Below are positions 4,567-18,360 of a DNA stretch of 64,000 bases, in pieces. Numbering within the stretch: the first letter of the stretch is position 1; each line of letters starts with the position of its first letter. Source of the DNA: Lutibacter sp. (GTDB taxonomy: Bacteria > Bacteroidota > Bacteroidia > Flavobacteriales > Flavobacteriaceae); the NCBI GenBank assembly GCA_027449025.1, contig DAIDMK010000005.1, positions 62,001 to 126,000 of the forward strand, read 5' to 3'. The position numbers were made by a program, and so were the translations under genes. Below the pieces are notes generated by a model. The model did not search any database, was not told the origin of the DNA, and worked only from the letters and a program-made list of their open reading frames with translations.

Positions 4567-4618
4567 TAAAGGCTTTCGCAAGCTCATGCATTTGTGAGGT
4601 CGGGAAAAAATATAAACT

Positions 4619-4648
4619 AAAAAAGCACCGTGAAAACGGTGCTTTTTT
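4619..4648. terminator. Bidirectional terminator between lepA and fdx
   Basis: AAAAAAGCACCGT and ACGGTGCTTTTTT form a perfect 13-bp stem closed by a GAAA tetraloop at 4632-4635. The A and T runs make it a rho-independent terminator on both strands, serving the convergent lepA (+) and ferredoxin (-) genes. Confidence 0.9.
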
Positions 4649-4664
4649 ATGAATTTTGAAGAAA

Positions 4665-5015
4665 TTATTCTCCGTGCATCCATTCTTTTTTTCCCATTAA
4701 TTGTTCTTCAGTTTCTACATGGTCTTCATCTAGAATACAACAATCAACTGGACAAACTGAAGCACATTGTGGTTCGTCATGAAAACCTTTACACTCTGTA
4801 CATTTATCAGTTACAATAAAATAGAATTCATCAGATAATGGTTCATTTCTTTTATCGGCATCAACTTGTTTACCTTTAGGCAAAGTTACCGTACCTTTTA
4901 AGGAAGTTCCATCTGAATATGCCCAATCTCCATCTGGTTCGTATATTGCATTATTTGGACATTCTGAAATACATGCATCACAATTAATGCATTCGTCTGT
5001 TATTCTAATAGCCAT
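4665..5015 (-). CDS. Dicluster 4Fe-4S ferredoxin
   Basis: A 116-residue acidic 2[4Fe-4S] ferredoxin. The first cluster motif is CINCDACISECP at about residues 10-21. The second is split by an insertion: CTECKGFHDEPQCASVCP at about residues 73-90. Between them is a linker of about 50 residues, longer than in clostridial ferredoxins. There is no membrane segment, so it should be a soluble low-potential carrier. It is divergent from korA across a 182-base spacer with promoter elements for both, which makes it a strong candidate electron acceptor of KorAB. Transcription ends at the strong terminator at 4619-4648. Direct docking to complex I is inference. Confidence 0.88.
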   Translation of the reverse strand: MAIRITDECINCDACISECPNNAIYEPDGDWAYSDGTSLKGTVTLPKGKQVDADKRNEPLSDEFYFIVTDKCTECKGFHDEPQCASVCPVDCCILDEDHVETEEQLMGKKEWMHGE

Positions 5016-5067
5016 GATTTGTAATTTTTATTATTTAATTATTTGACAAAATTATATAAAATTTATA

Positions 5068-5102
5068 CAAATCTATGTGATAAAAGTCATTTCCTTTTCA
5101 AA
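5068..5102 (-). promoter_or_regulatory. Predicted promoter of the ferredoxin gene
   Basis: On the minus strand TAGATTTG (5068-5075) matches TAnnTTTG, with TTTG at 5099-5102 twenty-three bases upstream. A second -7 match (TAATTTTG) lies at 5047-5054, closer to the gene. The -33 box falls inside the korA promoter spacer. Confidence 0.5.
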
Positions 5103-5120
5103 AAAGTAAACATACCTTTG
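5090..5120 (+). promoter_or_regulatory. Predicted promoter of korAB
   Basis: TACCTTTG at 5113-5120 matches the -7 consensus, with TTTC at 5090-5093 as a near -33 box and 19-base spacing. The leader would be about 70 bases. It overlaps the divergent ferredoxin promoter, so both could be controlled together. Confidence 0.6.
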
Positions 5121-5197
5121 AGGCTTTATATTGAACTTACAATAATTTTAAATAATTTTCAATAAATTTAAACAATTTTTTTTAATTTACATTAATT

Positions 5198-7051
5198 ATG
5201 ATTACAACTAAAACAATTCTTCAACCTGAGGTACTGGAAGCAGTAGTTGTCAGGTTTGTTGGGGATTCTGGAGACGGAATGCAGTTAACTGGAACTCAGT
5301 TTACTGATACCTCGGCAATGTTTGGTAATGATATCGCAACTTTTCCAAATTACCCTTCTGAAATTAGAGCCCCTCAAGGAAGTTTATATGGTGTTTCTGG
5401 ATTTCAGGTACACATTGGAAGCGTAGAAATAAGTACACCGGGAGACAATGTAGATTTGTTGGTTGCAATGAACCCTGCTGCGTTAAAAACCAATTTATAT
5501 GCCGTAAAGCCGGGTCACACAATTATTGTGGACACGGACTCCTTTACAAAGAAAAACTTAGACAAAGCGGAATATAAAACCAATCCGTTAGAAGATGGAA
5601 GTTTAGAAAACTACCGAGTTATTCAGGTTGATATGACCACGATGACCAAAGAAGCATTGAAAGATGTGGAAGGATTGGACAATAAATCGATTACTCGAAG
5701 TAAAAACATGTTTGCTTTAGGAATGGTTTATTGGATGTACAATCGCCCAAAAGATCATACAGTTGATTTTTTTAATAAAAAATTTAAGGGAAAACAACAT
5801 TTAATTGAAGCAAATACTAAGGTGTTAAATGCTGGTTATTATTTTGCGGAAACTTTGGAATTGATTCCAAATGCCTATACAATTTCCCCAGCTAAAATGA
5901 TTCCGGGAACCTATAGAATTATCGGTGGAAATACCGCTACCGCATGGGGATTGTTGGCAGCTGCAGAGAAATCTGGTTTAGAACTGTTTTTAGGTTCTTA
6001 CCCTATTACCCCAGCTACTGATATTTTACATGAATTGGTAAAACACAAACATTTTGGTGTAAAAGCTTTTCAGGCAGAAGACGAAATTGCTGGAGTTACT
6101 TCAGCCATTGGTGCTGCATTTGCTGGCGATTTAGCGATTACAACAACATCCGGACCTGGTTTGGCATTAAAAGGCGAAGCAATAGGTTTGGCTATGATGG
6201 TTGAACTGCCTTTGGTTATTATCAATGTACAACGTGGCGGACCTTCAACAGGATTGCCTACAAAAACAGAACAATCGGATTTAATGCAAGCAATGTATGG
6301 AAGAAACGGTGAAAGCCCAGTAATTGTAATTGCAGCAAGTACACCTTCCAATTGCTTTAATTTTGCTTATGAAGCTGCCCGTCTTGCTTTAGAACATATG
6401 ACTCCAGTAATATTATTGACAGACGGATACATTGCAAACGGTTCAGCACCTTGGAAAATTAAATCTACTGCTGATATGCCTGCAATTAAAAATCACAAAA
6501 TTGCAAAAATCAAAGAAAATTGGAGTCCTTATGACAGAGACGAAAAAACTCTGGCACGTAACTGGCCAGTTCCTGGAACACCCGGTTTAGAACATAGAAT
6601 TGGTGGTTTAGAAAAAGACCGTGTAACGGGGAATATTTCTTATGAACCTATTAACCATGAAGAAATGACTCGTATTAGAGCCGAAAAAGTGAGATTGGTT
6701 GAAAATAATATTCCTGAATTAAAAACAGAATTTGCAGATTCAGGTGATTTATTGGTAATTGGATGGGGAGGAACCTATGGCTCTTTACATTCTGCAGTAA
6801 AACAGATAAGTGACGAAGGCTATAAAAATATTGGATTTGCGCATTTCAATTATATCAATCCAATGCCTAAAAACACGGAAGAAATTTTATCTAAATACAA
6901 AAAAATAATTGTTTGTGAATTAAATGCCGGTCAATTTGTTTCTATCTTAAAAACTAGATTCACAAAATTTGAATTTTCTCAACACAACAAAATTCAAGGA
7001 TTGCCATTTTCTAACGACGAACTAATTCAACATTTTAAACAATTGGTATAA
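5198..7051 (+). CDS. korA: 2-oxoacid:ferredoxin oxidoreductase, fused gamma-alpha subunit (KorA-type)
   Basis: A 617-residue subunit. Residues of about 15-195 form the gamma domain (VRFVGDSGDGMQLTG at the start). The rest is the alpha part, beginning GGNTATAWGLLAAAE and containing SYPITPATDILHEL at about residue 268, the hallmark of the pyrimidine-binding domain. ERGGPSTGLPT-like RGGPSTGLPTKTEQSD follows near residue 347. With KorB it decarboxylates a 2-oxoacid, probably 2-oxoglutarate, to the acyl-CoA and reduces ferredoxin. The fused length is normal for KorA. korB starts 2 bases after the stop. Substrate cannot be fixed from sequence alone. Confidence 0.9.
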   Translation: MITTKTILQPEVLEAVVVRFVGDSGDGMQLTGTQFTDTSAMFGNDIATFPNYPSEIRAPQGSLYGVSGFQVHIGSVEISTPGDNVDLLVAMNPAALKTNLYAVKPGHTIIVDTDSFTKKNLDKAEYKTNPLEDGSLENYRVIQVDMTTMTKEALKDVEGLDNKSITRSKNMFALGMVYWMYNRPKDHTVDFFNKKFKGKQHLIEANTKVLNAGYYFAETLELIPNAYTISPAKMIPGTYRIIGGNTATAWGLLAAAEKSGLELFLGSYPITPATDILHELVKHKHFGVKAFQAEDEIAGVTSAIGAAFAGDLAITTTSGPGLALKGEAIGLAMMVELPLVIINVQRGGPSTGLPTKTEQSDLMQAMYGRNGESPVIVIAASTPSNCFNFAYEAARLALEHMTPVILLTDGYIANGSAPWKIKSTADMPAIKNHKIAKIKENWSPYDRDEKTLARNWPVPGTPGLEHRIGGLEKDRVTGNISYEPINHEEMTRIRAEKVRLVENNIPELKTEFADSGDLLVIGWGGTYGSLHSAVKQISDEGYKNIGFAHFNYINPMPKNTEEILSKYKKIIVCELNAGQFVSILKTRFTKFEFSQHNKIQGLPFSNDELIQHFKQLV

Positions 7052-7053
7052 TT

Positions 7054-8070
7054 ATGGAAACTACAACAGCTGTAAAAAAATATACATTTAAAGATTTTAC
7101 AAGTGATCAAGAAGTTAGATGGTGTCCTGGTTGCGATGATTACGTGATTTTGCGCTCTATGCAAAAAGCGCTTCCTGAAATGGGCGTTAACAAAGAAGAC
7201 GTAGTGTTTATTTCAGGTATTGGATGCTCATCACGTTTTCCTTATTATATGAGTACCTACGGTATGCATACTATTCATGGTAGAGCACCCGGAATTGCTT
7301 CAGGGGTAAAATTGGCAAATCCCAACTTAAGTGTTTGGGTTATGACTGGTGACGGGGATTCAATGGCTATCGGAGGAAATCATTTTATTCATTTATTGAG
7401 AAGAAACATCGATTTAAATATGGTCATGTTTAACAATGAAATTTATGGTTTAACCAAAGGACAATTTTCTCCAACTTCAATTATAGGTCAAAAAACAAAA
7501 TCATCTCCTTACGGAAACACACAACCTCCTTTTTCTCCAGGTGAATTGGCATTGGGTGCCAATGCACGATTCTTTGCAAGAATTGGTGGTAACAATCCGA
7601 AAGACATGACGCAAATTTTTATTGATGCACATAAATTTAAAGGAACTTCCTTAATTGAAGTACTTCAAAACTGTGTGATTTTCAACGATGGGTGTTTTGA
7701 CGAAGTAACCGATAAAGAGGTGAAAGAAGATAAACAAATTTTTCTTGAACACGGCAAACCTATGATTTTTGGCAAAAACAATGACAAAGGATTGGTGTTA
7801 AATAAGTTGAAATTGGAAGTGGTGACTATTGGTGAAAACGGCATAACGCAAGAAGATATTTTGGTACATAATGCCAAAGAAGAAGATAAAACGCTTCATC
7901 AAATGCTTGTAAGATTGGAATATCCATTAGCTACAGGTGTTATCAGAAGTTTTACCGATGTTACCTTAGAAGAAAGAGAAGATGCACTAACCGCACAGGT
8001 TAAATCAAACTCAAAATTCAAGAAAGCAGATGACCTTTTCTTTTCAGGAGAAACATACGAGGTTAAGTAG
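7054..8070 (+). CDS. korB: 2-oxoacid:ferredoxin oxidoreductase, beta subunit (KorB-type, TPP-binding)
   Basis: A 338-residue catalytic subunit. The thiamine-diphosphate/Mg motif is GDGDSMAIGGNH (about residues 98-109) with MFNNEIYGLTKGQ completing it (about 126-138). Cysteines for the internal 4Fe-4S cluster are visible as WCPGCDD (about 23-29) and GIGCSS (about 55-60), with a later Cys in LQNCVIFNDGCFD. No separate delta (ferredoxin-like) subunit is encoded, as usual for two-subunit Kor enzymes, so an external ferredoxin is required, and one is encoded divergently upstream. A terminator follows before nuoA, so korAB and nuo are neighbours with separate promoters. Confidence 0.9.
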   Translation: METTTAVKKYTFKDFTSDQEVRWCPGCDDYVILRSMQKALPEMGVNKEDVVFISGIGCSSRFPYYMSTYGMHTIHGRAPGIASGVKLANPNLSVWVMTGDGDSMAIGGNHFIHLLRRNIDLNMVMFNNEIYGLTKGQFSPTSIIGQKTKSSPYGNTQPPFSPGELALGANARFFARIGGNNPKDMTQIFIDAHKFKGTSLIEVLQNCVIFNDGCFDEVTDKEVKEDKQIFLEHGKPMIFGKNNDKGLVLNKLKLEVVTIGENGITQEDILVHNAKEEDKTLHQMLVRLEYPLATGVIRSFTDVTLEEREDALTAQVKSNSKFKKADDLFFSGETYEVK

Positions 8071-8086
8071 TAAATATAAAGAAAAT

Positions 8087-8115
8087 AGCTGATTTATGTC
8101 AGCTGTTTTTTTTTT
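8087..8115 (+). terminator. Rho-independent terminator after korB
   Basis: AGCTGA (8087-8092), a 6-base loop, TCAGCT (8099-8104), then G and ten T residues (8106-8115). The stem is short, so some read-through into nuo is possible. Confidence 0.75.
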
Positions 8116-8124
8116 ATAAAATCA

Positions 8125-8132
8125 TAATTTTG
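8125..8132 (+). promoter_or_regulatory. Probable -7 element of the nuo operon
   Basis: TAATTTTG matches TAnnTTTG and lies 26 bases before the nuoA ATG. The region about 20 bases upstream is the T tract of the korB terminator rather than a clear TTTG. Confidence 0.5.
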
Positions 8133-8158
8133 TCCACGAATTAAAAAGTATATAAAAA

Positions 8159-8509
8159 ATGGGTTCAGAAGCCATCATTGTATTTTTACTTGCAGCCATT
8201 GTTTTGGTTGCCGGCGCAAACTTTTTATCAAATTTAATTTCACATAAATCTGATAATCCTCAAAAAAGAGAACCTTATGAATGCGGTATACCAACCATCG
8301 GTCCAACCTGGATTCAATTTAAAGTAGGGTATTATCTTTTTGCCATTCTTTTCCTGATTTTTGATGTTGAAGTTGCATTTTTAGTGCCTTGGGCAGTAGT
8401 TTATAAAGAAGTTGGCACTGTTGCTTTAGTAGAAATTATTGTATTCCTTTTCATATTGGGATTAGGATTATTATACGCATATAAAAAACGAGCTTTACAA
8501 TGGGAGTAG
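8159..8509 (+). CDS. nuoA: Complex I subunit A (NuoA)
   Basis: A 116-residue inner-membrane protein with three hydrophobic segments (about residues 5-25, 56-78, 84-106). The conserved loop [23 protein letters not shown], near residues 37-59, includes the Cys of the TM1-2 loop and is typical of NuoA. It helps hold the quinone-site interface together with NuoH, NuoB and NuoD. First gene of the eleven-gene nuo set; the last 10 bases overlap nuoB, suggesting translational coupling. Confidence 0.95.
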
Positions 8510-9096
8510 AAAAAAAACGATATTTAAACCAGCTTGAAGAAGAGGGCTTAAAACAAGTTGTTCCTGCCGATTTTCCAGGAAAAATAATCCCTGGCGGCAA
8601 TGGAGGAAACATTGTTGTTACCACCTTAGACAGCGTTATCAATTGGGGACGCGCAAATTCACTTTGGTCCTTATATTTTGGCACAAGCTGTTGCGCAATA
8701 GAAATGATGCAAACAGGTGCCGCAAAACACGATTATTCAAGATTTGGTTTTGAGGTTGCAAGACCTTCAGCGCGCCAAGCAGATTTAATCATTATTGCCG
8801 GAACCATTGTGAACAAAATGGGACCTGTGTTGCGACGATTGTATGATCAAATGGCCGAACCAAAATATGTAATTGCAATGGGTGCTTGCGCTATTTCTGG
8901 CGGACCGTTTTACTACAATTCCTATTCGGTAATTAAAGGTGCTGACCATGTAATTCCAGTAGATGTATATGTTCCTGGATGCCCTCCAAGACCAGAAGCC
9001 TTATTGGAAGGAATGATTATGCTTCAACAAAAAATTAAAACTGAAAACATGACCAAAAAGGTAAATCCTATAGATGGTTTTGATGAAGGAAAATAA
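8500..9096 (+). CDS. nuoB: Complex I subunit B (NuoB), cluster N2 ligand subunit
   Basis: A 198-residue peripheral-arm subunit carrying the terminal 4Fe-4S cluster N2. The four ligands are visible: the tandem cysteines in [11 protein letters not shown] (about residues 63-64), the Cys in GACAISGG (about 128), and that in VPGCPPRPE (about 159). It passes electrons from NuoI to quinone. The N-terminus is about 40 residues of basic lead-in before the conserved core. It starts inside nuoA (10-base overlap). Confidence 0.96.
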
Positions 9097-9118
9097 TTTG
9101 TATTAAATCATAAAGAGC

Positions 9119-9580
9119 ATGACAAACGAAGATTTACAAAATATAATTACCGGTTTGGGAACCGATTTGGAATTTACAACTGAAGGTTCTGAATTTTTAA
9201 ATGTAATCGTTCCCAAAGAACAGCTTCACAGTATTTGCAGCCAGTTAAAATCGCATCCCGAATTAAAATTTGATTATGCATTTTGCATAACCGGTATGGA
9301 TTGGGTTCCAGCATTGGGTGTTATTTACCATTTAAATTCAACTGAATTTAAACATGAAATTGTTGTAAAAGTAATGGTTGATGACCGAGAAAATCCAACA
9401 TTGGATTCCGTGCATGACATATGGCAAACAGCAGACTTTCACGAACTTGAAATATTCGATTTTTTCGGCATAAAATTCAACAACCATCCAAAACTAAGAC
9501 GCATTTTTTTAACGCCTGAGTGGGAAGGTTTTCCGTTGAGAAAAGATTATGTTGATGAAGCAAATATGATTATTAAATAG
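9119..9580 (+). CDS. nuoC: Complex I subunit C (NuoC, 30 kDa)
   Basis: A 153-residue peripheral-arm subunit. The family signature region is seen as WQTADFHELEIFDFFGIKF and then HPKLRRIFLTPEWEGFPLRKDY near the C-terminus. It is not fused to NuoD, unlike Bacteroides-type NuoCD. It stabilises the Q-module with NuoD. Spacing of 22 bases from nuoB and 4 bases to nuoD indicates one transcript. Confidence 0.93.
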   Translation: MTNEDLQNIITGLGTDLEFTTEGSEFLNVIVPKEQLHSICSQLKSHPELKFDYAFCITGMDWVPALGVIYHLNSTEFKHEIVVKVMVDDRENPTLDSVHDIWQTADFHELEIFDFFGIKFNNHPKLRRIFLTPEWEGFPLRKDYVDEANMIIK

Positions 9581-9584
9581 CCTT

Positions 9585-10709
9585 ATGATGACGGACCAAC
9601 AAGTACAAAATAAAATAAAAACTGAAGAGTATTTTATTAACATGGGACCGCAGCACCCGGCAGCTCATGGGGTGTTACGATTAATTTTAACCATTGACGG
9701 CGAAATCATAAAAAATGTTGAACCCGATTTAGGTTACATACACCGTTCTATCGAAAAAATGTGTGAACGCGATAGTTACCAGCAAATCGTTCATTTAACG
9801 GACAGAATGGATTATTTGTCGTCACACATTAATAACGAAGCGGTTTGTTTAACGGTTGAAAAAGGTCTTGAAATAGAAGTTTCAGACAGGGTTAAAGTAA
9901 TCAGAACTATTATAGCTGAGTTAACCCGTATTGCTTCTCACTGCTTATGGTGGGGTGTTATGGGAATGGATTTAGGTGCATTAACCACCTATTTTTATGC
10001 TTTTAGGGATCGTGAAATGATCAATGATATTTTTGAAGAAACCTGCGGTGCCCGTTTAACCATGAACTACAATGTTCCGGGCGGATTAATGTTCGATATT
10101 CACCCTAATTTTGTAAAACGCACCAAAGATTTTATTGCTCAGTTTAAAACCAAGATTCCAGAATACAATCGTTTACTGACAGACAATGTGATTTTTCATA
10201 AAAGAACAAAAGGTGTTGGTATCCTTACCAGAGAAGATGCTATTTCTTTTGGGGTTTCAGGACCAGTTGCAAGAGGGTCAGGATTTTCAAGTGACGTGAG
10301 AAAACACCATCCTTACAGTGCTTATGACCGTGTTGATTTTAAAGAAATTTTATTTACTGAAGGCGACACCTTTGCACGTTATCAAGTTAGAATGATGGAA
10401 TTGTGGGAATCCGTTTCAATTATTGAACAATTGATTGACAACATTCCTGAAGGTGAAATAAAAGCAGCCACAAAAGCAGTCATAAAATTACCGAAAGGTG
10501 AATTTTACCAAAGAGTTGAAACAGCAAGAGGTGAACTTGGCGTTTATATAAACAGTACCGGAAACAAAAACCCATATCGCGTAAAATTCCGCTCACCAGG
10601 ATTTTCTAATTTATCTATTTTAAATCACATTTCAAAAGACGTATTGATAGCCGATTTAGTGGCTACAATGGCATCGTTTGATTTTGTAATTCCAGATATA
10701 GATCGTTAA
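9585..10709 (+). CDS. nuoD: Complex I subunit D (NuoD, 49 kDa)
   Basis: A 374-residue Q-module subunit. NMGPQHPAAHGVLRL near residue 20 is the quinone-cavity loop, with the conserved His. Further family landmarks are GYIHRSIEKM, the C-terminal PGFSNL and the terminal DFVIPDIDR. It lacks the nickel-binding cysteines of its hydrogenase relatives at both ends, as true complex I members do. Two start codons in tandem (ATGATG) lie four bases after nuoC. Confidence 0.95.
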   Translation: MMTDQQVQNKIKTEEYFINMGPQHPAAHGVLRLILTIDGEIIKNVEPDLGYIHRSIEKMCERDSYQQIVHLTDRMDYLSSHINNEAVCLTVEKGLEIEVSDRVKVIRTIIAELTRIASHCLWWGVMGMDLGALTTYFYAFRDREMINDIFEETCGARLTMNYNVPGGLMFDIHPNFVKRTKDFIAQFKTKIPEYNRLLTDNVIFHKRTKGVGILTREDAISFGVSGPVARGSGFSSDVRKHHPYSAYDRVDFKEILFTEGDTFARYQVRMMELWESVSIIEQLIDNIPEGEIKAATKAVIKLPKGEFYQRVETARGELGVYINSTGNKNPYRVKFRSPGFSNLSILNHISKDVLIADLVATMASFDFVIPDIDR

Positions 10710-10718
10710 TCAAAGACC

Positions 10719-11798
10719 ATGAATTTTATACAAATGATTATTCCTTTAAACATCACAAAAACAATCTCAGATTGGATTTCTTCAATAATGCCTGAAACTG
10801 CTGCAAATTACACCATTATGGTTGTAATTGCAGTTGCTTATTTGGTCTTATTCGCTGTAGCAGGTTTGTATTTAGTGCTTTTAGAACGTAAAGTTGCCGC
10901 TTGGTTTCAATTGCGTATAGGACCGAACAGGGTTGGCCCTTGGGGGCTTTTGCAAACGATGGCAGATGCTTTGAAACTTGTTTCAAAAGAGTTGACAAGC
11001 ACCATCAAAATCGACAAGTTTTTATACAATTTAGCGCCTTATTTTGTGATTGTTGCGGCATTAATGGCTATGGCAGTTTTTCCGTTCTCAAAGCAATTTC
11101 AAGCATTCGACATTAATATTGGTGTCTTTTTCTTAATTGCAATTTCATCAATTGGCGTTATCGGAATTTTGTTGGCAGGCTGGTCAAGCAATAACAAATT
11201 CGCTTTGATTGGGGCTATGAGAAGTGGTTTGCAAACCATAAGTTATGAATTATCGGTTGGACTTTCCATCTTAACAATGGTCTTGTTAACGGGTTCTTTA
11301 CAACTCTCAGAAATAGTGGAAGCACAACGCACCGGAGGATGGCTTATTTTACAAGGCCATGTTCCTTCCATCATCGCTTTCATGATTTTTATGATTGCAG
11401 GCACCGCAGAAACCAACAGGGCACCTTTTGATTTGGTGGAAGCTGAATCGGAATTGGGAGCGGGTTTCCATACCGAATACTCGGGAATGAAATTCGCTTA
11501 TTTCTTCTTGGCTGAATTTATAAACATGTTTATAATTTCCTCCATTGCCGTGGTATTATTTTTTGGAGGTTGGCTATCCCCTTTTGGAATTACTGATAAT
11601 ATTACTTGGTTTCCTGAAGTAATCTGGTTTATCATTAAAGTTGTAGGTCTCATCTTTTTGATGATGTGGTTTAGATGGACTTTCCCTAGATTAAGAGTCG
11701 ACCAATTATTAACCCTTGAATGGAAATATTTATTGCCTTTAAATTTGATGAATTTAATGTTAATGGCAATAATAATATGGCTGAATTGGACAATTTAA
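10719..11798 (+). CDS. nuoH: Complex I subunit H (NuoH)
   Basis: A 359-residue inner-membrane subunit with about eight hydrophobic segments, linking the Q-module to the proton-pumping arm. The signature LLERKVAAWFQLRIGPNRVG (about residues 55-74) and the acidic loop AETNRAPFDLVEAESELGAG (about 228-247) are intact. In an ordinary operon nuoEFG would lie between nuoD and nuoH; here nuoH starts 9 bases after nuoD, so those genes are absent from this locus. Confidence 0.95.
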   Translation: MNFIQMIIPLNITKTISDWISSIMPETAANYTIMVVIAVAYLVLFAVAGLYLVLLERKVAAWFQLRIGPNRVGPWGLLQTMADALKLVSKELTSTIKIDKFLYNLAPYFVIVAALMAMAVFPFSKQFQAFDINIGVFFLIAISSIGVIGILLAGWSSNNKFALIGAMRSGLQTISYELSVGLSILTMVLLTGSLQLSEIVEAQRTGGWLILQGHVPSIIAFMIFMIAGTAETNRAPFDLVEAESELGAGFHTEYSGMKFAYFFLAEFINMFIISSIAVVLFFGGWLSPFGITDNITWFPEVIWFIIKVVGLIFLMMWFRWTFPRLRVDQLLTLEWKYLLPLNLMNLMLMAIIIWLNWTI

Positions 11799-11817
11799 TA
11801 AATGAAATGCACCTAAA

Positions 11818-12294
11818 ATGAGTTATTTTTCAGATATATATAAAGGAATAAAAACCTTGCTGACAGGGATGTCGGTTACAGGAAATTATTTTATTCACGC
11901 ACGAAAAGGGGCTATTACACAAGAATACCCAGACAATAGAGAAACGCTTAAAATGTTTGATCGTTTCAGGGGTGAAGTCGTCATGCCTCATACAGATGAC
12001 AATCGTCATCGTTGTACGGGTTGCCAGTCTTGTGAAATCGCTTGTCCGAATGGATCCATAGAAATTATTTGGGACAGGGCCGTTGACCCGGAAACAGGAA
12101 AAAAGAAGAAGAAAATTGACAAGCATATTTACCATTTATCCATGTGCACCATGTGCGGATTGTGTATTGAAGCTTGTCCGACCGATGCCATTGTTTGGGC
12201 GCAGAATTTTGAAAATTCTGTATACGACAGGAGTAAATTAACTAAAATTTTAAACCAACCAGGTTCATCTGTTTTAGACGGAATAGAAGATTAA
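11818..12294 (+). CDS. nuoI: Complex I subunit I (NuoI), two 4Fe-4S clusters N6a/N6b
   Basis: A 158-residue ferredoxin-like subunit with two four-cysteine motifs: CTGCQSCEIACPNGSI at about residues 61-76 and CTMCGLCIEACPTDAI at about 104-119. In a complex without NuoEFG it is the likely entry point for electrons delivered by an external donor such as ferredoxin (inference by analogy with eleven-subunit complexes of plastids, cyanobacteria and archaea). The insert between the motifs is Lys-rich (KKKKKIDKH), a plausible docking patch for an acidic ferredoxin. Confidence 0.94.
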   Translation: MSYFSDIYKGIKTLLTGMSVTGNYFIHARKGAITQEYPDNRETLKMFDRFRGEVVMPHTDDNRHRCTGCQSCEIACPNGSIEIIWDRAVDPETGKKKKKIDKHIYHLSMCTMCGLCIEACPTDAIVWAQNFENSVYDRSKLTKILNQPGSSVLDGIED

Positions 12295-12298
12295 TATT

Positions 12299-12814
12299 AT
12301 GGAAAGAATTATATTTTATATACTCGCTGCGGTTATTATTTTATTCGCCGTTGCTTCAGTTACCAGCAGAAAAATTTTAAGGGCAGTTATTTACTTACTT
12401 TTTGTGTTGATTGGCATAGCCGGACTTTATTTTTTAGTTGATTACAACTTTTTAGCGGCTATTCAGCTTACTGTTTATGGCGGTGGTATTATTGTACTGT
12501 TCATTTTTGCTGTGTTGCTAATTCACCATGTTGAGCTTGAATTGGAAAAAACAGCTTTAAAGAAAAAACTCATTGCCGGCGCTCTAAGCGCTGCGGGTTT
12601 AGCTGTTACGATTTGGGCAATTTCAACTTATCCATTCCCAGAAACAACCTCAACTTATACTTCTGTAGAAGTTGTTGATATAGGCCGAATTTTATTGAGT
12701 TATGAAGATGGCGGATTTATATTGCCTTTTGAAGTAATTAGTGTGCTGTTGGTAGCCGTAATGATTGGCGCTATTGTAGTGGCGAAAGGAAAAAAATTAA
12801 CTGAAAATAACTAA
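12299..12814 (+). CDS. nuoJ: Complex I subunit J (NuoJ)
   Basis: A 171-residue protein with five predicted membrane helices. LRAVIYLLFVLIGIAGLYFL and the following AAIQLTVYGGGIIVLFIFAVLL, which contains the conserved Tyr-Gly-Gly break in TM3, are typical. It sits at the junction of the E-channel with NuoA, NuoH and NuoK. Four bases after nuoI and five before nuoK. Confidence 0.93.
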   Translation: MERIIFYILAAVIILFAVASVTSRKILRAVIYLLFVLIGIAGLYFLVDYNFLAAIQLTVYGGGIIVLFIFAVLLIHHVELELEKTALKKKLIAGALSAAGLAVTIWAISTYPFPETTSTYTSVEVVDIGRILLSYEDGGFILPFEVISVLLVAVMIGAIVVAKGKKLTENN

Positions 12815-12819
12815 TCAAG

Positions 12820-13137
12820 ATGATTGCAGGTATTAGCATTTACGAAATTTTAACCCTCACAAGTATCTTATTTTTTATAGGTGTTTACGGGTTTTTCACA
12901 AGAGAGAACTTAATAACGGTATTAATGTCGGTTGAGCTGATTTTAAATGCCTCAGCCGTAAATTTTGTGTTAATCAACACTTATTTGTATCCAGATTTAC
13001 TTCAGGGAGCCGTATTTTCAATTTTTATTATTGCATTGGCTGCTGCTGAAACAGCGTTGGCCATTGCTATTATTATCAATTTGTACAAACTCATTTACTC
13101 TGTTGAAGTGAAGGATACAGAAATCATGAAATATTAA
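12820..13137 (+). CDS. nuoK: Complex I subunit K (NuoK)
   Basis: A 105-residue three-helix membrane subunit related to MrpC. The acidic residues buried in the helices are present: the Glu in MSVELILNA (about residue 38) and the Glu in AAAETALAIAI (about 76). It forms part of the proton path between NuoJ and NuoN. Confidence 0.95.
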   Translation: MIAGISIYEILTLTSILFFIGVYGFFTRENLITVLMSVELILNASAVNFVLINTYLYPDLLQGAVFSIFIIALAAAETALAIAIIINLYKLIYSVEVKDTEIMKY

Positions 13138-13164
13138 ATAGACAAAAAATTTAAACTATAAAAA

Positions 13165-15084
13165 ATGGATTTTAGTTATACCATATTAATTCCTCTGATT
13201 CCTTTAGCAATGTTTGTCGTTTTAGGGATATTCAGCAAAAAGATACCGGCTTCAATTTCGGGTTGGTTAGGATCATTGGGTTTAGGAACCTCGTTTGTAT
13301 TGTCATTATATACTGCCTACCATTATTTTTTAGAAGGAAAATTAAATGGGGTTTATCAAACATTTATTTACAAACAAACCTGGCTCGTTTTTACAGATAA
13401 ATTGCATATAGATTTAGGTGTACTGATTGACCCAATCTCTGTAATGATGATGGTAGTTGTAACTACCGTTTCATTTATGGTTCATTTATACAGTAGGGGG
13501 TATATGCATGGGGATGATGGCTACACACGCTTTTTTTCGTACTTGGCCTTATTCAGTTTTTCAATGCTAGGATTGGTGTTGGCAACAAACTTATTTCAAA
13601 TGTATATTTTTTGGGAATTGGTTGGGGCTTCTTCCTTTTTATTGATAGGTTATTATTACACAAAACCTTCTGCAGTGGCTGCCGCAAAGAAAGCATTTAT
13701 TGTAACGCGTTTTGCTGACTTGGGTTTCTTAATAGGAATTCTTTTAATTAGTTATTATACGGGTACTTTTGATTTTCAAGATTTAACCAGTGAAGAAGGA
13801 TTGCTAATTACCGGTTGGGGCGCTTCCGCTTCCTTTATGGGACTGTCTGTATTCACTTGGGGATTGATCTTAATTTATATGGGTGGTGTCGGTAAGTCGG
13901 CAATGCTTCCTTTTCACATTTGGTTACCAGATGCTATGGAAGGTCCAACACCTGTTTCTGCCTTAATTCACGCAGCTACAATGGTAGTTGCCGGTGTATA
14001 TTTAGTGGCGCGGTTATTTCCAGCCTACTATTTTGTGGATGAAGGATTCGCCTTGCAAGTCGTTGCTTATGTGGGTGCTATTTCTTCCTTGGCTGCGGCT
14101 TTAATTGCCATAACCCAAACCGACATAAAACGTGTTTTAGCATTTTCTACGATGTCTCAAATTGGTTATATGATGCTGGCCTTAGGTGTTTCAAAATACG
14201 AAGGTCACGAAGGAGTTGGATATATGGCCTCTATGTTCCATTTATTTACACACGCGATGTTTAAAGCCTTGTTATTCTTAGCTGCTGGTTCTGTAATTCA
14301 CGCAGTTCACAGCAACTATATGAAAGATATGGGTGGCTTGAGAAAATATATGCCAATTACGCACATTACTTTTTTAATTGCATCACTTTCAATTGCAGGT
14401 TTTCCTGGATTTGCAGGGTTTTTTAGTAAAGATGAAATTTTAGTTGCGGCTTTTGAAAGCAATAAACTCATTTATTTTAGCAGTGTTTTTGTGGCAGGTT
14501 TAACAGCATTTTATATGTTCCGTTTGTATTTTAACATTTTTTGGGGCGAAGACAGGAAATACAAACACACGCCTCATGAATCTCCGCTATCAATGACAAT
14601 TCCGCTTATATTTTTAGCATTTATGAGTATTTTTGCCGGTTATATACCTTTTAGTCAATTTGTAACAGCCGATCTTACCCCTTTTGACGCACATTTAAAT
14701 CTGCCTTTGGCAGCAATCGCTTCATCAGTAGGAATTATTGGAATTATTATAGCGTTTATATTCTATAAAAAACCAAATGATTTGCCTGAAAGATTTGCAA
14801 AAGCTTTTGGCTTCATTTATAAGTGGCTTTACAACAAACTTTATTTTGACGAATTATACATTTTTGTAACCAAGAAAATACTTTTTGGAGTTGTGGCTTT
14901 TTCTGCTTCATGGTTCGATAAAAACGTTGTAGATGGTTCAATGATCGGAATTGGAAATGTAACTGTTTCGGTTTCAAATAAAATTAAGGGAATGCAATCA
15001 GGTAAATTACAAGATTACGGAATGTCATTTGTTGGTGGTATTGTTGTAATCGCGATGATTGTTTTTTATATATGGATAAATTAA
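13165..15084 (+). CDS. nuoL: Complex I antiporter-like subunit L (NuoL)
   Basis: A 639-residue distal pump subunit with about 16 hydrophobic segments and the long C-terminal lateral-helix region. Key membrane residues are intact: the Glu in FWELVGASSF (TM5) and the Lys in GGVGKSAMLPFHIWLPDAM (TM7), then GPTPVSALIHAATMVVAGVY. The C-terminal part contains YKWLYNKLYFDELY typical of NuoL ends. Ten bases before nuoM. Confidence 0.96.
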   Translation: MDFSYTILIPLIPLAMFVVLGIFSKKIPASISGWLGSLGLGTSFVLSLYTAYHYFLEGKLNGVYQTFIYKQTWLVFTDKLHIDLGVLIDPISVMMMVVVTTVSFMVHLYSRGYMHGDDGYTRFFSYLALFSFSMLGLVLATNLFQMYIFWELVGASSFLLIGYYYTKPSAVAAAKKAFIVTRFADLGFLIGILLISYYTGTFDFQDLTSEEGLLITGWGASASFMGLSVFTWGLILIYMGGVGKSAMLPFHIWLPDAMEGPTPVSALIHAATMVVAGVYLVARLFPAYYFVDEGFALQVVAYVGAISSLAAALIAITQTDIKRVLAFSTMSQIGYMMLALGVSKYEGHEGVGYMASMFHLFTHAMFKALLFLAAGSVIHAVHSNYMKDMGGLRKYMPITHITFLIASLSIAGFPGFAGFFSKDEILVAAFESNKLIYFSSVFVAGLTAFYMFRLYFNIFWGEDRKYKHTPHESPLSMTIPLIFLAFMSIFAGYIPFSQFVTADLTPFDAHLNLPLAAIASSVGIIGIIIAFIFYKKPNDLPERFAKAFGFIYKWLYNKLYFDELYIFVTKKILFGVVAFSASWFDKNVVDGSMIGIGNVTVSVSNKIKGMQSGKLQDYGMSFVGGIVVIAMIVFYIWIN

Positions 15085-15093
15085 TTTAATACA

Positions 15094-16584
15094 ATGGATA
15101 TTTTATCACTTTTTGTAATAGTACCGATTTTAATTGTTTTGGCTTTAACATTTTTTGCTAAAGACCTAAAACAGGCAAGACTCATATCGGTAGTAGGAAT
15201 GGGAATTCAGTTTGCCATGTCTATAAATTTAATATTTGCTTACTTAAAAGAGCGCGCAACTAATACAGACATTATGGTTTTTACCAAAGATGTTGTTTGG
15301 TACGAAACTTTTAATATTCATTATAGTATTGGTGTTGATGCCATTTCGGTGGTGATGATTGCCTTAACAGCTATTGTGCTATTGGCAGGTGTATTTATTT
15401 CCTGGAAAATAGATGATTTGCCTAAAGAATTTTTTATATCGCTGATCGCTTTGTCATCGGGAGTTTTTGGGTTCTTTATTTCAACCGACTTGTTTACCAT
15501 GTTTGTGTTTTATGAAATAGCTGTAATACCGATGTATCTCTTAATAGGTATTTGGGGCTCGGGACCAAGAGAACATTCGGCCATGAAATTAACATTGATG
15601 TTAATGGGTGCTTCCGCAGTTTTATCCGTAGGGATTTTAGGTATTTATTTTAATTCCAATGCCGATGGAGGTCCTTTAACCTTTAACATCTTTGAAATTG
15701 CACAAGTCAACATACCTGTAGCGGCACAAAACATATTTTATCCAATGACCTTTATTGGTTTTGCAGTAATCGGAGCTTTATTTCCATTTCATACTTGGTC
15801 ACCTTCAGGTCACGCTTCTGCGCCAACAGCTGTTTCAATGTTACACGCAGGGGTGCTTATGAAATTAGGTGGTTATGGCGTATTCAGAATCGCGATGTAC
15901 TTGTTGCCAGAAGGTGCTTTAAACTGGGCTGATTTTTTCTTAATCTTGTCCGCTTTCGGAGTTATCTATGGAGCCTTTGGTGCAGTAATGCAAAAAGATT
16001 TAAAATATGTGAATGCTTATGCCTCAGTGAGCCATTTGTCGCTGGTTTTATTCGCCTTGTTAATGTTTAATAAAACAGCTTGGACTGGCGCGATCCTTCA
16101 ATCCTTATCACACGGATTGTTAACGGCAATGTTCTTTGCTTTAATCGGAATGGTTTACGGAAGAACGCATACGCGTGAAATCTCAAAATTAGGCGGTATT
16201 ATGAAAATATTGCCTTTTATTGGTGCCATTTATGTAATTACTGGTTTGGCTTATTTAGGTTTGCCAGGATTCAGTGGATTTGTGGCTGAAATGACCGTGT
16301 TTGTAGGCGCCTTTCAACATCCTGATATGTTCCGCAGAATATTAACCATTGTGGTGGTTTCTTCCATTGTGGTAACGGCCGTTTATATATTAAGAATGGT
16401 TGGTAAAATTATGATGGGACCTTTATCAAATGAGGAATATAAAGATTTACCAAAAGCAACCTGGTTTGAAAAAACTGGATTGATTTTATTGCTGATACCG
16501 GTTATTTTAATTGGTGTTTTGCCATTGGGATTAAGTGAAATGATAAAAGATAGTCTTCAACCATTTCTTGAACGATTATTATAA
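15094..16584 (+). CDS. nuoM: Complex I antiporter-like subunit M (NuoM), with altered TM7
   Basis: A 496-residue antiporter-like subunit with about 14 hydrophobic segments. The TM5 Glu is present (FYEIAVIPMYL), as is the TM8 Lys (LHAGVLMKLGGYG). The TM7 segment reads FAVIGALFPFHTWSPSGHAS. In E. coli NuoM, as I recall it, the same place reads FAVKMPVVPLHGWLPDAHSQ, with the conserved lysine 234. Here that position is Ile, and the Leu-Pro-Asp-Ala loop is Ser-Pro-Ser-Gly. NuoL and NuoN in this operon keep their TM7 lysines. Identity as NuoM is secure; the pumping consequence is inference. Confidence 0.94.
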   Translation: MDILSLFVIVPILIVLALTFFAKDLKQARLISVVGMGIQFAMSINLIFAYLKERATNTDIMVFTKDVVWYETFNIHYSIGVDAISVVMIALTAIVLLAGVFISWKIDDLPKEFFISLIALSSGVFGFFISTDLFTMFVFYEIAVIPMYLLIGIWGSGPREHSAMKLTLMLMGASAVLSVGILGIYFNSNADGGPLTFNIFEIAQVNIPVAAQNIFYPMTFIGFAVIGALFPFHTWSPSGHASAPTAVSMLHAGVLMKLGGYGVFRIAMYLLPEGALNWADFFLILSAFGVIYGAFGAVMQKDLKYVNAYASVSHLSLVLFALLMFNKTAWTGAILQSLSHGLLTAMFFALIGMVYGRTHTREISKLGGIMKILPFIGAIYVITGLAYLGLPGFSGFVAEMTVFVGAFQHPDMFRRILTIVVVSSIVVTAVYILRMVGKIMMGPLSNEEYKDLPKATWFEKTGLILLLIPVILIGVLPLGLSEMIKDSLQPFLERLL

Positions 16585-16596
16585 AAATAAAATAAC

Positions 16597-18027
16597 ATGA
16601 ATTTAGAAAGTTTTCTATTAATGCGCTCGGAAATAGGATTATTGGCAATTTTATTATTGCTAATCATATTCGAAATATTTTCTAACAAAAAACAAAAAGC
16701 AGCGGTCATTCCATTTGCTATAATATTATTGGCCATCAATACCGCCCTAGGATTTTTACCGCAAGAATCAGGTGAATTATTTGGCGGCATGTTTAGAACA
16801 AATGCGCTATTATATTTCTTTAAAACAACCTTAAGTTTCGGTGTTTTAATTTTATTGTTACAATCGGCCGACTGGCTGAAGGCAAAAGTAGTCGATGAAA
16901 ATAAAGCACCAGAATTTTTTATGTTGATTATTTCATCCTTGCTTGGAGCTTATTTTATGATTTCTGCAGGTGATTTTTTAATGTTTTACATTGGTTTAGA
17001 ATTGACAACACTTCCTGTTACTGCTTTGGTGGCTTATGATACCTATAAAAGAATCTCTGCCGAAGGCGCTGTTAAATATATTTTATCTTCGGCCTTGGCT
17101 TCTGGAGCCGCTTTATTTGGTGTTTCCTTATTGTATGCAACCACCGGAACTATTTATTTTGATTCGATGGCAGAAATTTTAACAAGTTCTAATTTATCGA
17201 TTTTAGCATTTGTGTTTTTCTTTTCAGGATTGGCATTTAAAACCTCCTTGGTGCCCTTTCATTTTTGGACTGCGGATGTTTATGAAGGCGCACCCATTAA
17301 TGTTGCTTCCTATTTATCGGTAATTTCAAAAGGAGCGGCAGTCCTTATTTTAACGATTCTGTTGTTTACCGTGTTTAAATCGCTAATGCCGGCTTGGAAC
17401 AAAATAATTTATATTGTTACTATTGCCACTATGTTTATTGGTAACCTATTTGCGCTACGACAACAAAATATGAAACGTTTCTTAGCCTATTCATCAATTG
17501 CACAGGCTGGTTTTATATTGTTGGGCTTAATGTCGGTTGACCAATTAGGAATCACCACAATCATTTATTTTGTAGCAATTTATATCTTCTCAAATTTAGC
17601 TGCTTTTGGTGTTGTACAGGCAATTTCTTCGTTTTCAGACAAGGAAAATATCGACGATTACGAAGGTCTTTACAGAACGAATCCTAAATTAAGCTTGTTA
17701 ATGATGTTGGCCTTATTTTCATTGGCTGGTATTCCGCCATTGGCTGGTTTTTTTGGTAAATTCTTTTTATATACCGCAGCAGCAAGTCAAGGTTATTACA
17801 TCCTTGTATTTATTGCGGTGGTAAACGCCACAATTTCCTTATACTACTATTTATTGGTGGTAAGAGCAATGTTTTTAAGACAAAGTGATTCAGCAATTCC
17901 TTATTTTAGAAGCCCGTTTTATATGCGATTGGGATTGATTTTGGCAGCCATCGGTATTTTAGTGATTGGAGTTTACAGCCCAATTTATGATTATATATTT
18001 TCAATTAGTAATAGTTTTTTAAATTAA
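16597..18027 (+). CDS. nuoN: Complex I antiporter-like subunit N (NuoN)
   Basis: A 476-residue antiporter-like subunit next to NuoK in the complex, with about 14 hydrophobic segments. TM5 Glu is seen in FYIGLELTTLPVTALVAYD and TM7 Lys in GLAFKTSLVPFHFWTADVYE, followed by GAPINVASYLSVISKGAAVL. Last recognised structural gene of the operon; a small unknown gene starts 6 bases after its stop. Confidence 0.94.
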   Translation: MNLESFLLMRSEIGLLAILLLLIIFEIFSNKKQKAAVIPFAIILLAINTALGFLPQESGELFGGMFRTNALLYFFKTTLSFGVLILLLQSADWLKAKVVDENKAPEFFMLIISSLLGAYFMISAGDFLMFYIGLELTTLPVTALVAYDTYKRISAEGAVKYILSSALASGAALFGVSLLYATTGTIYFDSMAEILTSSNLSILAFVFFFSGLAFKTSLVPFHFWTADVYEGAPINVASYLSVISKGAAVLILTILLFTVFKSLMPAWNKIIYIVTIATMFIGNLFALRQQNMKRFLAYSSIAQAGFILLGLMSVDQLGITTIIYFVAIYIFSNLAAFGVVQAISSFSDKENIDDYEGLYRTNPKLSLLMMLALFSLAGIPPLAGFFGKFFLYTAAASQGYYILVFIAVVNATISLYYYLLVVRAMFLRQSDSAIPYFRSPFYMRLGLILAAIGILVIGVYSPIYDYIFSISNSFLN

Positions 18028-18033
18028 TTTAAT

Positions 18034-18360
18034 ATGGCACTTGGAGGAAATCATTTATTTGGAAGCATTGGAGAAACAAGAGTTACTTTTGTTGAAAAAG
18101 GGGTGGATGAAAACCGTAGGGATTTTTTAAAAAACCTATTGGAAGTAAACGGCTTTGAAGTTGTGATTGATGAAGATAAAATAAAAACAGAAGGCGATCC
18201 GCAAATGTACACCGTTGCTGTAACTGATATGACTTTTAATCCGACCGTTTGGGTTTTTCAACGCAGACTAAATACTCAAGACGGCAGAAAAGTAACGCAA
18301 GATTATTGGAACCAAAAAACCGAAGAAACAAATCCAAGATATTGGAAAAACGAGAAATGA
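18034..18360 (+). CDS. Unknown 108-residue soluble protein at the end of the nuo operon
   Basis: I do not recognise this family. The product is 108 residues, without cysteine, signal peptide or membrane segment, and is rich in charged residues. A central stretch GFEVVIDEDKIKTEGDPQMY and the following TVAVTDMTFNPTVWVFQRRL look like a small alpha/beta domain, and the C-terminus is aromatic and polar (DYWNQKTEETNPRYWKNEK). It starts 6 bases after nuoN, so it is almost certainly co-transcribed with complex I. An accessory subunit, assembly factor or donor-docking protein are all possible; none is shown. It is real by spacing, frame and composition. Confidence 0.75.
   Translation: MALGGNHLFGSIGETRVTFVEKGVDENRRDFLKNLLEVNGFEVVIDEDKIKTEGDPQMYTVAVTDMTFNPTVWVFQRRLNTQDGRKVTQDYWNQKTEETNPRYWKNEK

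What the first reader, a model, noticed from the sequence alone, without database searches (positions are those of the whole stretch)
4665..18360. Ferredoxin, KorAB and an eleven-gene complex I without nuoEFG form one bioenergetic cluster in an aerobe
The nuo genes run A-B-C-D-H-I-J-K-L-M-N with only 9 bases between nuoD and nuoH, so the NADH module (E, F, G) was never or is no longer part of the locus. Directly upstream are a 2-oxoacid:ferredoxin oxidoreductase that needs an external ferredoxin, and a divergent dicluster ferredoxin. Eleven-subunit complexes elsewhere (cyanobacterial and plastid NDH-1, some archaea) use ferredoxin or other donors. NuoI here has a Lys-rich insert between its clusters and the ferredoxin is acidic, which would suit docking. 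The same window encodes O2-dependent hppD and hmgA. Together this suggests 2-oxoacid to ferredoxin to complex I to quinone electron flow in an aerobic flavobacterium.
Basis: partly seen in the sequence, partly recalled or inferred. Interest (0 to 1): 0.8.

Follow-up and report, generated by a model that had tools for sequence, protein, structure and literature searches.

The report
Ferredoxin-fed headless respiratory complex I
A marine bacterium carries a respiratory proton pump that lacks the part that takes electrons from NADH, and its genes sit beside a ferredoxin and the enzyme that charges that ferredoxin, an arrangement kept in many relatives, which points to the missing electron donor of such "headless" complexes.

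Summary
In detail: fdx (divergent), korA, korB, nuoABCDHIJKLMN, no nuoEFG. The genome, a Lutibacter relative, has two NuoF-like proteins, both under the NuoF equivalog cut-off, one in a NiFe-hydrogenase locus and one with a formate dehydrogenase. Of 149 family genomes, 17 carry this headless nuo; all 17 have the long KorA, adjacent in 16; 7 of 17 have no NuoF-family protein. Six KorA genomes without nuo have Rnf-like genes, in three of them exactly at korB's end. NqrF is present in all 26 KorA genomes. Ferredoxin is the best-supported donor; nothing biochemical was tested. "Aerobe" is overstated; OGDH is also present; the NuoI "insert" is not an insert. Headless complex I in Bacteroidetes is known, donor unknown (PMC7002350); this new variant makes the donor directly testable.

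The parts
4665..5015 (-). fdx: 2[4Fe-4S] ferredoxin of the YfhL/Allochromatium type, 116 aa, acidic (26 D+E, 10 K+R), divergent from korA
   Evidence: NF033683 95.5 bits, cut-off 86; best PDB relatives 2fgo, 3exy, 1blu; upstream of korA in Nuo-type loci and in 4 of 5 fetched Rnf-type loci; charge count
5198..7051 (+). korA: fused gamma-alpha subunit of 2-oxoacid:ferredoxin oxidoreductase, 617 aa
   Evidence: TIGR03710 645.6 bits, cut-off 482.75; best PDB match 6n2n, E 3.9e-70, the Magnetococcus 2-oxoglutarate enzyme by recall
7054..8070 (+). korB: beta subunit with TPP domain and CPGC motif, 338 aa; no ferredoxin domain found
   Evidence: TIGR02177 243 bits, under its cut-off 261.9; Pfam TPP_enzyme_C; PDB 5b46, 6n2n
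8071..8158 (+). 88-bp korB-nuoA gap: terminator-like hairpin, T run, TAnnTTTG box 34 bp before nuoA
   Evidence: such a hairpin in 32 of 82 gaps, the box in 48 of 82. The general scan lists a stem here on the minus strand only
8159..8509 (+). nuoA
   Evidence: PF00507
8500..9096 (+). nuoB; cysteines for cluster N2 present by reading
   Evidence: TIGR01957 over cut-off; sequence
9119..9580 (+). nuoC
   Evidence: PF00329; TIGR01961 slightly under cut-off
9585..10709 (+). nuoD; best PDB match NdhH of NDH-1 (6hum)
   Evidence: NF004739 over cut-off
10719..11798 (+). nuoH
   Evidence: NF004741 over cut-off
11818..12294 (+). nuoI, two 4Fe-4S motifs and a Lys-rich inter-cluster segment; likely docking end (inferred)
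   Evidence: (TIGR01971 under cut-off)
12299..12814 (+). nuoJ
   Evidence: NF005168 E 1.4e-27, under cut-off
12820..13137 (+). nuoK
   Evidence: NF004320 over cut-off
13165..15084 (+). nuoL, TM7 Lys and TM5 Glu kept
   Evidence: TIGR01974 over cut-off
15094..16584 (+). nuoM, TM7 Lys replaced by Ile, new His in TM8; TM5 Glu, TM8 Lys, two central His and TM12 Glu kept
   Evidence: TIGR01972 over cut-off
16597..18027 (+). nuoN, TM7 Lys kept
   Evidence: TIGR01770 over cut-off
18034..18360 (+). orfX: 108-aa protein of undescribed family, after nuoN in comparable loci
   Evidence: no Pfam hit (two relatives likewise); alignment A1 of 16 with 32 invariant positions; position

Best explanation
The locus encodes a 2-oxoacid-to-quinone electron path. 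KorAB oxidises a 2-oxoacid (probably 2-oxoglutarate) with CoA and passes electrons to the divergently encoded dicluster ferredoxin. Reduced ferredoxin docks near NuoI on the NuoBCDI stub, and electrons run through the NuoI and NuoB clusters to menaquinone; the drop from ferredoxin to menaquinone drives proton pumping by NuoHAJKLMN. NADH is handled separately by Na+-NQR. OrfX is proposed to be a twelfth subunit, perhaps capping the exposed end of the Q-module. In NuoM the channel base normally held by the TM7 Lys has moved to a TM8 His. Shown here: the genes, no complex-I NuoF found, the conserved linkage, Rnf in the same place in some relatives, the NqrF pattern, and the residue changes. Inferred: electron direction, ferredoxin docking, quinone type, substrate, OrfX role, pumping.
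For: [quoted passage not shown] 7 of 17 headless genomes have none, including G125, one contig. (2) KorA in 17 of 17 headless genomes and 9 of the other 132 (Fisher p 3e-16, not corrected for relatedness); adjacent to nuo in 16 of 17 (coordinates read by eye). (3) Six of the nine KorA genomes without nuo have RnfC-like frames; in L025, L027, L028 the rnf operon ends beside korB, where nuo begins elsewhere, and 5 of 80 named loci have rnf after korB (one of them, L121, has the same KorB and contig length as L028). 23 of 26 KorA genomes have headless nuo or RnfC-like frames, against 5 of 123 others (p 4e-19; 4 of 123, which left out G117). (4) NqrF over cut-off in 26 of 27 tested genomes, the exception being the one with a 14-gene nuo. 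(5) Four genomes of another family hold a headless nuo+orfX and a separate nuo with EFG; in a NuoB+D+H+I tree these copies fall on opposite sides and the 14-gene loci group with support 99. (6) B. fragilis headless NUO showed no NADH:quinone contribution, donor unknown (PMC7002350, passages). (7) Ferredoxin input to NDH-1 with PFOR under oxic conditions is argued from mutants in Synechocystis (PMC8887894, abstract and passages).
Against: No direct evidence of electron transfer. Linkage may reflect shared regulation, and a terminator-like hairpin separates korB from nuoA in the window and near relatives. Four f4 genomes have headless nuo with korA elsewhere; two of these have a flavin reductase gene directly before nuoA instead. 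G128 has korAB and nuo on different contigs. G462 has a headless-type nuo without long KorA or any NuoF family match. In B. fragilis kor1AB and nuo lie far apart by locus tag (PMC11304471, passages). Three KorA genomes (G033, G104, G147; the last 73% complete) have neither pump; 9 of 80 named loci have neither next to korB (one, L089, a scaffold gap). Four or five KorA-less genomes have RnfC-like frames, so Rnf does not need KorAB.
Confidence: 0.74

Rival explanations
1. The complex runs backwards: proton-motive force drives electrons from menaquinol up to ferredoxin, and KorAB uses them to carboxylate succinyl-CoA. Same parts, reverse direction.
For: KorA's best solved relative is 6n2n, an enzyme recalled as working in a reductive TCA cycle; OGDH is present for the oxidative direction, leaving KorAB free for the reductive one.
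Against: Rnf in the same place usually carries ferredoxin electrons to NAD (recalled); five KorA genomes lack an OGDH match (G003, G116, G128, G146, G147; three of them at most 90% complete), where an oxidative role would be needed.
Confidence: 0.1
2. An NADH diaphorase made elsewhere (the NuoE/F-like subunit of the hydrogenase or of the formate dehydrogenase) docks on the Nuo stub and restores NADH input.
For: The own genome has both; HoxEFU feeding NDH-1 has been proposed in cyanobacteria (PMC9414918, start of abstract in a listing).
Against: 7 of 17 headless genomes have no NuoF-family match; both loci carry their own catalytic subunits; NQR is present for NADH.
Confidence: 0.07
3. The complex has another soluble donor (flavodoxin, an FNR-type flavoprotein) and the korAB neighbourhood is a shared regulon of low-oxygen genes.
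For: A PF00175/PF00970 flavoprotein gene directly precedes nuoA in two f4 loci; korAB is not always adjacent.
Against: korAB is the redox neighbour in 16 of 17 family genomes; Rnf, a ferredoxin enzyme, takes the same place in some.
Confidence: 0.07
4. The headless complex works as an Mrp-like Na+/H+ exchanger, as raised for Prevotella (PMC6560451, passages).
For: NuoL, M, N are antiporter relatives.
Against: NuoB, NuoD and NuoI are kept with cluster cysteines and long alignments to NdhH and NuoI.
Confidence: 0.02

Closest known systems
Headless (11-subunit) NUO of Bacteroides fragilis and Prevotella
   Same: Same 11 genes, no nuoEFG, NQR present. The two f11 loci with fused nuoCD (taken to be this type from gene layout; B. 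fragilis is written NuoABC/DHIJKLMN in PMC11304471) are the nearest branch in the tree and also lack the NuoM TM7 Lys. Reported not to oxidise NADH in B. fragilis (PMC7002350).
   Different: nuoC and nuoD separate here; orfX absent in the two f11 loci; fdx-korAB linked here; donor 'unknown' in that paper.
Photosynthetic NDH-1 (cyanobacteria, plastids)
   Same: No NuoEFG; ferredoxin donor; best PDB match of NuoD is its NdhH and of NuoM its NdhD.
   Different: NDH-1 has extra subunits (NdhS and others, recalled), not searched here; the OrfX profile has no PDB relative (best E 0.37). The two NdhD-type chains aligned keep the TM7 Lys.
[quoted passage not shown]
   Same: Headless; PFOR and ferredoxin proposed as donors from co-expression (PMC11238625, passages).
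   Different: There neither candidate ferredoxin gene is near PFOR or the hydrogenase; here fdx and a 2-oxoacid:ferredoxin oxidoreductase sit beside nuo.
KorAB of Mycobacterium tuberculosis
   Same: Two-subunit KOR with fused alpha/gamma in an oxygen-using organism, reported stable in air (PMC2773412, abstract and passages).
   Different: No complex I link seen in the passages; OGDH is present here.
Rnf complex
   Same: Ferredoxin-oxidising ion pump found beside korAB in related genera that lack this nuo.
   Different: Unrelated subunits; electrons go to NAD, not quinone (recalled).

Membership tests
Complex I superfamily, headless (11-gene) NUO | nuoA, B, C, D, H, I, J, K, L, M, N present | tested here: met
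Complex I superfamily, headless (11-gene) NUO | no nuoE, F, G in the locus and no complex-I nuoF elsewhere | tested here: met
   9-bp nuoD-nuoH gap; only two NuoF-family matches, with hydrogenase and formate dehydrogenase, under the NuoF cut-off
Complex I superfamily, headless (11-gene) NUO | no separate nuoE or nuoG elsewhere in the genome | not tested
   PF01257 and PF10588 were not searched genome-wide
Complex I superfamily, headless (11-gene) NUO | quinone reductase core (NuoB/D) and clusters in NuoB, NuoI intact | tested here: met
   by sequence:
Canonical 14-subunit NADH:quinone oxidoreductase | NADH module | tested here: not met
   tree
Canonical proton-pump architecture of complex I | Glu-Lys pair (TM5/TM7) in all three antiporter-like subunits | tested here: not met
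   NuoM TM7 Lys absent in 67 of 68 headless rows; kept in NuoL and NuoN
Photosynthetic NDH-1 | additional subunits such as NdhS | not tested
   no NdhS-type search; OrfX profile has no PDB match and its fold prediction never returned
2-oxoacid:ferredoxin oxidoreductase, KorAB type | fused gamma-alpha KorA, TPP-binding KorB, external ferredoxin | tested here: met
2-oxoacid:ferredoxin oxidoreductase, KorAB type | 2-oxoglutarate as substrate | not testable with these tools
   hints only: best PDB relative 6n2n; SucB/SucA-like ORFs about 70 bp from korB in L113 and about 5 kb away in L061
YfhL / Allochromatium-type 2[4Fe-4S] ferredoxin | two cluster motifs, family score over cut-off | tested here: met
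   NF033683 95.5 vs cut-off 86, where about 35 extra residues separate the two halves
Ferredoxin:quinone oxidoreductase (function) | reduced ferredoxin reduces quinone | not testable with these tools
   genomic inference only

The most novel reading that the evidence does not exclude
Bacteroidia carry a distinct 12-subunit ferredoxin:menaquinone oxidoreductase: a headless complex I with its own subunit OrfX, fed by KorAB/PFOR ferredoxin, and with a rewired NuoM proton channel in which the lysine reported essential in other complexes I has been given up and its charge re-sited, as a TM8 histidine (63 of 63 rows) or a TM5 lysine (4 of 4).
Probability: 0.45. Interest if true: 0.82.

Novelty: new variant of a known kind. 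Interest (0 to 1): 0.66.

Why it matters
The electron donor of headless complex I is an open question in print (PMC11238625: no common donor found; PMC7002350: unknown donor). A lineage in which donor enzyme, ferredoxin and complex are encoded side by side, with Rnf as a natural stand-in, makes the question testable in culturable strains. The NuoM change is a natural experiment on complex I coupling: a residue reported essential for catalysis (K232 in P. denitrificans, PMC9802314) is missing through a clade, with a matched new protonatable residue elsewhere. Annotation may be affected: the L. profundi genome paper lists an NADH-dehydrogenase complex I beside Na+-NQR (PMC5219744, passage); I did not inspect that genome.

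Tried and rejected
Structure prediction of OrfX was polled 33 times (last) and never finished, so no fold search was run; the second prediction job was not used. The OrfX profile against PDB sequences gave E 0.37 and worse (uL30 and others), treated as noise. I rejected 'recent loss of nuoEFG in this genome': headless copies group together and four f4 genomes hold both forms; the tree is unrooted, so ancestral absence versus old loss is not decided. I rejected KorAB as the sole 2-oxoglutarate route (OGDH present). The Lys-rich NuoI stretch is also present where korAB is not adjacent, so I give it little weight. PMC12361115 was searched for six terms and had nothing on 11-subunit or Bacteroidota complexes. 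Literature searches listed no paper on the korAB-nuo link in this family, on orfX or on NuoM lysine loss; I saw capped listings, starts of abstracts and passages, from an open-access library only.

Limits of the counts. KorA-NuoD distances were read by eye. Fisher values ignore phylogeny. RnfC-like means a PF01512 match of about 440 bases in a 406-460-aa frame; 10 of the 15 genomes so counted were confirmed by neighbouring rnf genes in fetched loci, the other five (G034, G110, G116, G121, G146) were not; G117 (423 aa) was left out and added. The two samples overlap: L014 and L094 are identical in NuoM and KorB, L028 and L121 in KorB; L108/L109 and L118/L119 also share KorB. In one search, five rows without orfX but with room (L020, L086, L093, L103, L125) were left out by hand because searches show no nuoN there. 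The L005 ferredoxin starts at the first base of the fetched contig and its C-terminal half is not a real alignment. One search scored presence of nuo or rnf genes in the locus; adjacency of nuoA to korB rests.
Full report
1. What is there. The window is contig C5, 62001-126000, of a 3.34 Mb, 136-contig genome rated 100% complete. KorB is 97% identical to that of a Lutibacter MAG (L052), so this is a Lutibacter or near relative. A further ORF, here called orfX (18034-18360, 108 aa), ends the cluster and has no Pfam match.

2. Is the NADH module elsewhere? The NuoF family PF01512 has two matches in the genome. One is a fused NuoE/NuoF-like protein followed by a fusion of a NuoG/HoxU-like part and a hydrogenase-small-subunit-like part, a NiFe hydrogenase large subunit, and a 150-aa ORF that reads like a maturation protease. 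The other sits beside a formate dehydrogenase alpha (TIGR01591 over cut-off) and an FdhD-like ORF. Both score 330-337 bits against a NuoF equivalog cut-off of 559. NuoE and NuoG families were not searched genome-wide on their own. No RnfC-like match exists in the genome, and the NuoD model finds this locus plus a weak match to a 580-aa frame, so by these two searches this is the only candidate ferredoxin-oxidising pump.

3. Linkage across the family. In 149 evenly drawn family genomes (148 genera), the long KorA (TIGR03710 over cut-off) occurs in 26, the headless-type NuoD in 17, a NuoD with NuoF about 1 kb away in 1 (G127), and PF01512 in 36. All 17 headless genomes have KorA against 9 of the other 132. 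KorA lies about 2.5-3 kb upstream of NuoD on the same strand in 16 of 17; G128 has them on different contigs. Fetched loci show fdx(<-) korA korB nuoABCDHIJKLMN orfX in the same order (fdx is missing at a contig end in L010, nuoN and orfX in L020). Seven of the 17 genomes (G007, G037, G103, G106, G125, G128, G133) have no PF01512 match, which speaks against a NuoF-type input there within the completeness of the assemblies.

4. Rnf takes the same seat. Nine KorA genomes lack nuo; six have RnfC-like frames (G048, G061, G062, G126, G134, G143), three have neither (G033, G104, G147). In L025 the operon rnfBCDGEA ends 32 bases from the korB stop, convergent to it, and L027 and L028 are alike; in L026 rnf lies upstream of korA, in L029 about 4 kb from korB, and in G048 on another contig. 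fdx is upstream of korA in four of these five loci (not L026). In several loci of both types a PFOR gene lies near fdx. In a second, named sample, the best 80 of 220 KorB relatives found by pattern in GTDB species genomes, two or more nuo genes are in 60, rnf in 5, neither in 9 (one, L089, is a scaffold gap inside nuoA), and 6 are cut by contig ends; fdx is upstream in 60 of the 65 loci with at least 700 bp there. nuoA starts 2-503 bp after korB in all 82 loci of both samples where both were found. The samples overlap in at least two genomes. Two unrelated ferredoxin-oxidising pumps at one site beside the same KorAB and ferredoxin is the strongest genomic argument that ferredoxin is what the headless complex takes.

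5. NADH has another door. NqrF is over its cut-off in 26 of 27 tested genomes; the exception is G127, the 14-gene genome. An OGDH E1 match is present in 142 of 149 genomes including the own one; five of the seven without it carry KorA (G003, G116, G128, G146, G147; 80, 96, 99, 90 and 73% complete). KorAB is thus an addition to OGDH here and perhaps a substitute in a few relatives. A SucB-like ORF lies about 70 bp from korB in Aquimarina (L113) and a SucA-like ORF about 5 kb away in Lutibacter sp. B1 (L061) (names by reading), a hint that 2-oxoglutarate is the substrate.

6. A class-wide headless isozyme. A profile of orfX found 11 of 345 genomes across the phylum sample, all in the same class. 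In the eight of these newly fetched, orfX follows nuoN in all; korAB precedes nuoA in the two f8 and two f1 loci, not in the four f4 loci. The four f4 genomes also hold a separate nuo cluster with nuoEFG (L138-L141). A maximum-likelihood tree of NuoB+D+H+I (39 rows, LG+G4, 1000 ultrafast bootstraps) groups all 14-gene loci with support 99; the f4 headless and 14-gene copies fall on opposite sides; the two Bacteroidales-type loci (L147, L148; fused nuoCD, no orfX) join the orfX clade against all else with support 100; the odd headless locus L146 lies between. The tree is unrooted.

7. OrfX. Of 50 rows with a nuoN-like hit, 31 have orfX (30 within 114 bp of nuoN, one, L016, at 953 bp); 14 of the other 19 have at most 61 bp of sequence left, and 5 have no real nuoN. 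Sixteen sequences share 32 invariant positions. It occurs without adjacent korAB (L018, L046-L049), so it follows nuo rather than korAB. It is absent from the headless loci L146, L147 and L148 and from the 14-gene G127. A role as extra subunit is inference from position and conservation; the fold prediction did not return.

8. NuoM. In antiporter-like subunits a TM5 Glu pairs with a TM7 Lys (E. coli NuoM E144/K234, PMC13073174 passage; P. denitrificans E141/K232, reported essential for catalysis, PMC9802314 passage). In the window NuoM the Lys position holds Ile. Of 73 aligned rows, 68 are headless: Ile or Leu in 63, Phe in 4, Lys in 1 (L146). Three 14-gene rows have Lys (L021, L138, L139), a fourth (L141) is truncated there, and one row is a hydrogenase-like paralogue with Glu. 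NuoL and NuoN keep their Lys in 81 of 82 and 62 of 65 rows; the exceptions are two such paralogues and two truncated ends. The three solved NuoM/NdhD chains aligned have Lys. Where Lys is lost, a His stands in TM8 six residues before the TM8 Lys in 63 of 63 (f1, f8, Bacteroidales-type) or a Lys six residues after the TM5 Glu in 4 of 4 (f4); the Lys-bearing rows have neither. TM numbers are by homology to the papers' residues. This looks like re-siting of a protonatable group rather than decay, but relatedness means it may be only two events. NdhD keeps its Lys, so ferredoxin use alone does not explain it.

9. Mechanism. KorAB (CPGC motif, no ferredoxin domain found) needs an external carrier; the divergent Fdx is acidic (26 D+E, 10 K+R). 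NuoI's inter-cluster segment is Lys-rich and slightly less negative than in the two 14-gene NuoI compared, but not longer (32 vs 34 aa). NuoD aligns best with NdhH. Electron flow 2-oxoacid, KorAB, Fdx, NuoI-NuoB, menaquinone, with pumping, is the best reading. The direction could be reversed under high proton-motive force.

10. Prior knowledge. Headless NUO in Bacteroides and Prevotella is described (PMC7002350, PMC6560451, passages), with NADH excluded in B. fragilis and the donor unknown; there kor1AB and nuo are far apart by locus tag (PMC11304471, passages). PMC11238625 (passages) says an attempt to find a common donor for 11-subunit enzymes failed and proposes PFOR-ferredoxin, among others, in Desulfitobacterium from co-expression. 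Ferredoxin input to NDH-1 with PFOR in oxic Synechocystis is argued in PMC8887894 (abstract, passages). My searches listed no paper on the korAB-nuo link in Flavobacteriaceae, on orfX, or on NuoM lysine loss.

11. Verdict.

Noticed in passing
L003:6569-11560 (own genome, contig C6): NiFe hydrogenase locus with a fused NuoE/NuoF-like subunit and a fused HoxU-like/small-subunit-like gene; permease-like genes follow.
   Followed up: partly
L004 (own genome, contig C68): Formate dehydrogenase alpha over cut-off, with a fused NuoE/NuoF-like subunit and an FdhD-like ORF.
   Followed up: partly
own genome C40:19119-21496, C39:14570-16768, C15:62954-63940: Three further 2-oxoacid:ferredoxin-oxidoreductase-like loci: VOR/KOR-like and IOR-like by size and profile, and a PFOR 76% identical to a relative's; a strong anaerobic side to a flavobacterium.
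   Followed up: no
L034, L035, L036 (G128, G116, G146): A second nuoB/C/D/H/L-like cluster in three headless genomes, with Glu at the TM7 Lys position of some antiporter-like subunits; may be an Ech/Mbh-type complex.
   Followed up: no
L046:6770-7489 and L048:6386-7087: FAD/NAD-binding reductase (PF00970/PF00175) directly before nuoA of headless nuo in two f4 genomes: an alternative donor candidate.
   Followed up: partly
L142:4378-9321 (G132): A 1647-aa ORF 23% identical to PFOR over part of its length, directly upstream of rnfCDGEA.
   Followed up: no
L146 (G462): Headless-type nuo split by unrelated ORFs between nuoD and nuoH, in a genome with no NuoF family match and no long KorA; keeps the NuoM Lys.
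   Followed up: partly
window 22536-25337: hppD (TIGR01263, 440 bits) and an HgmA_N-domain protein, with a 23S rRNA-intervening-sequence-type protein gene between them.
   Followed up: no
window 56837-58363: Succinyl-CoA:acetate CoA-transferase (NF053853, 738 bits) in the same window; could take up the succinyl-CoA made by KorAB.
   Followed up: no
window 4618-4649: Strong terminator-like hairpin (14 pairs, both strands) between the upstream 618-aa translation-factor-like ORF and fdx.
   Followed up: no
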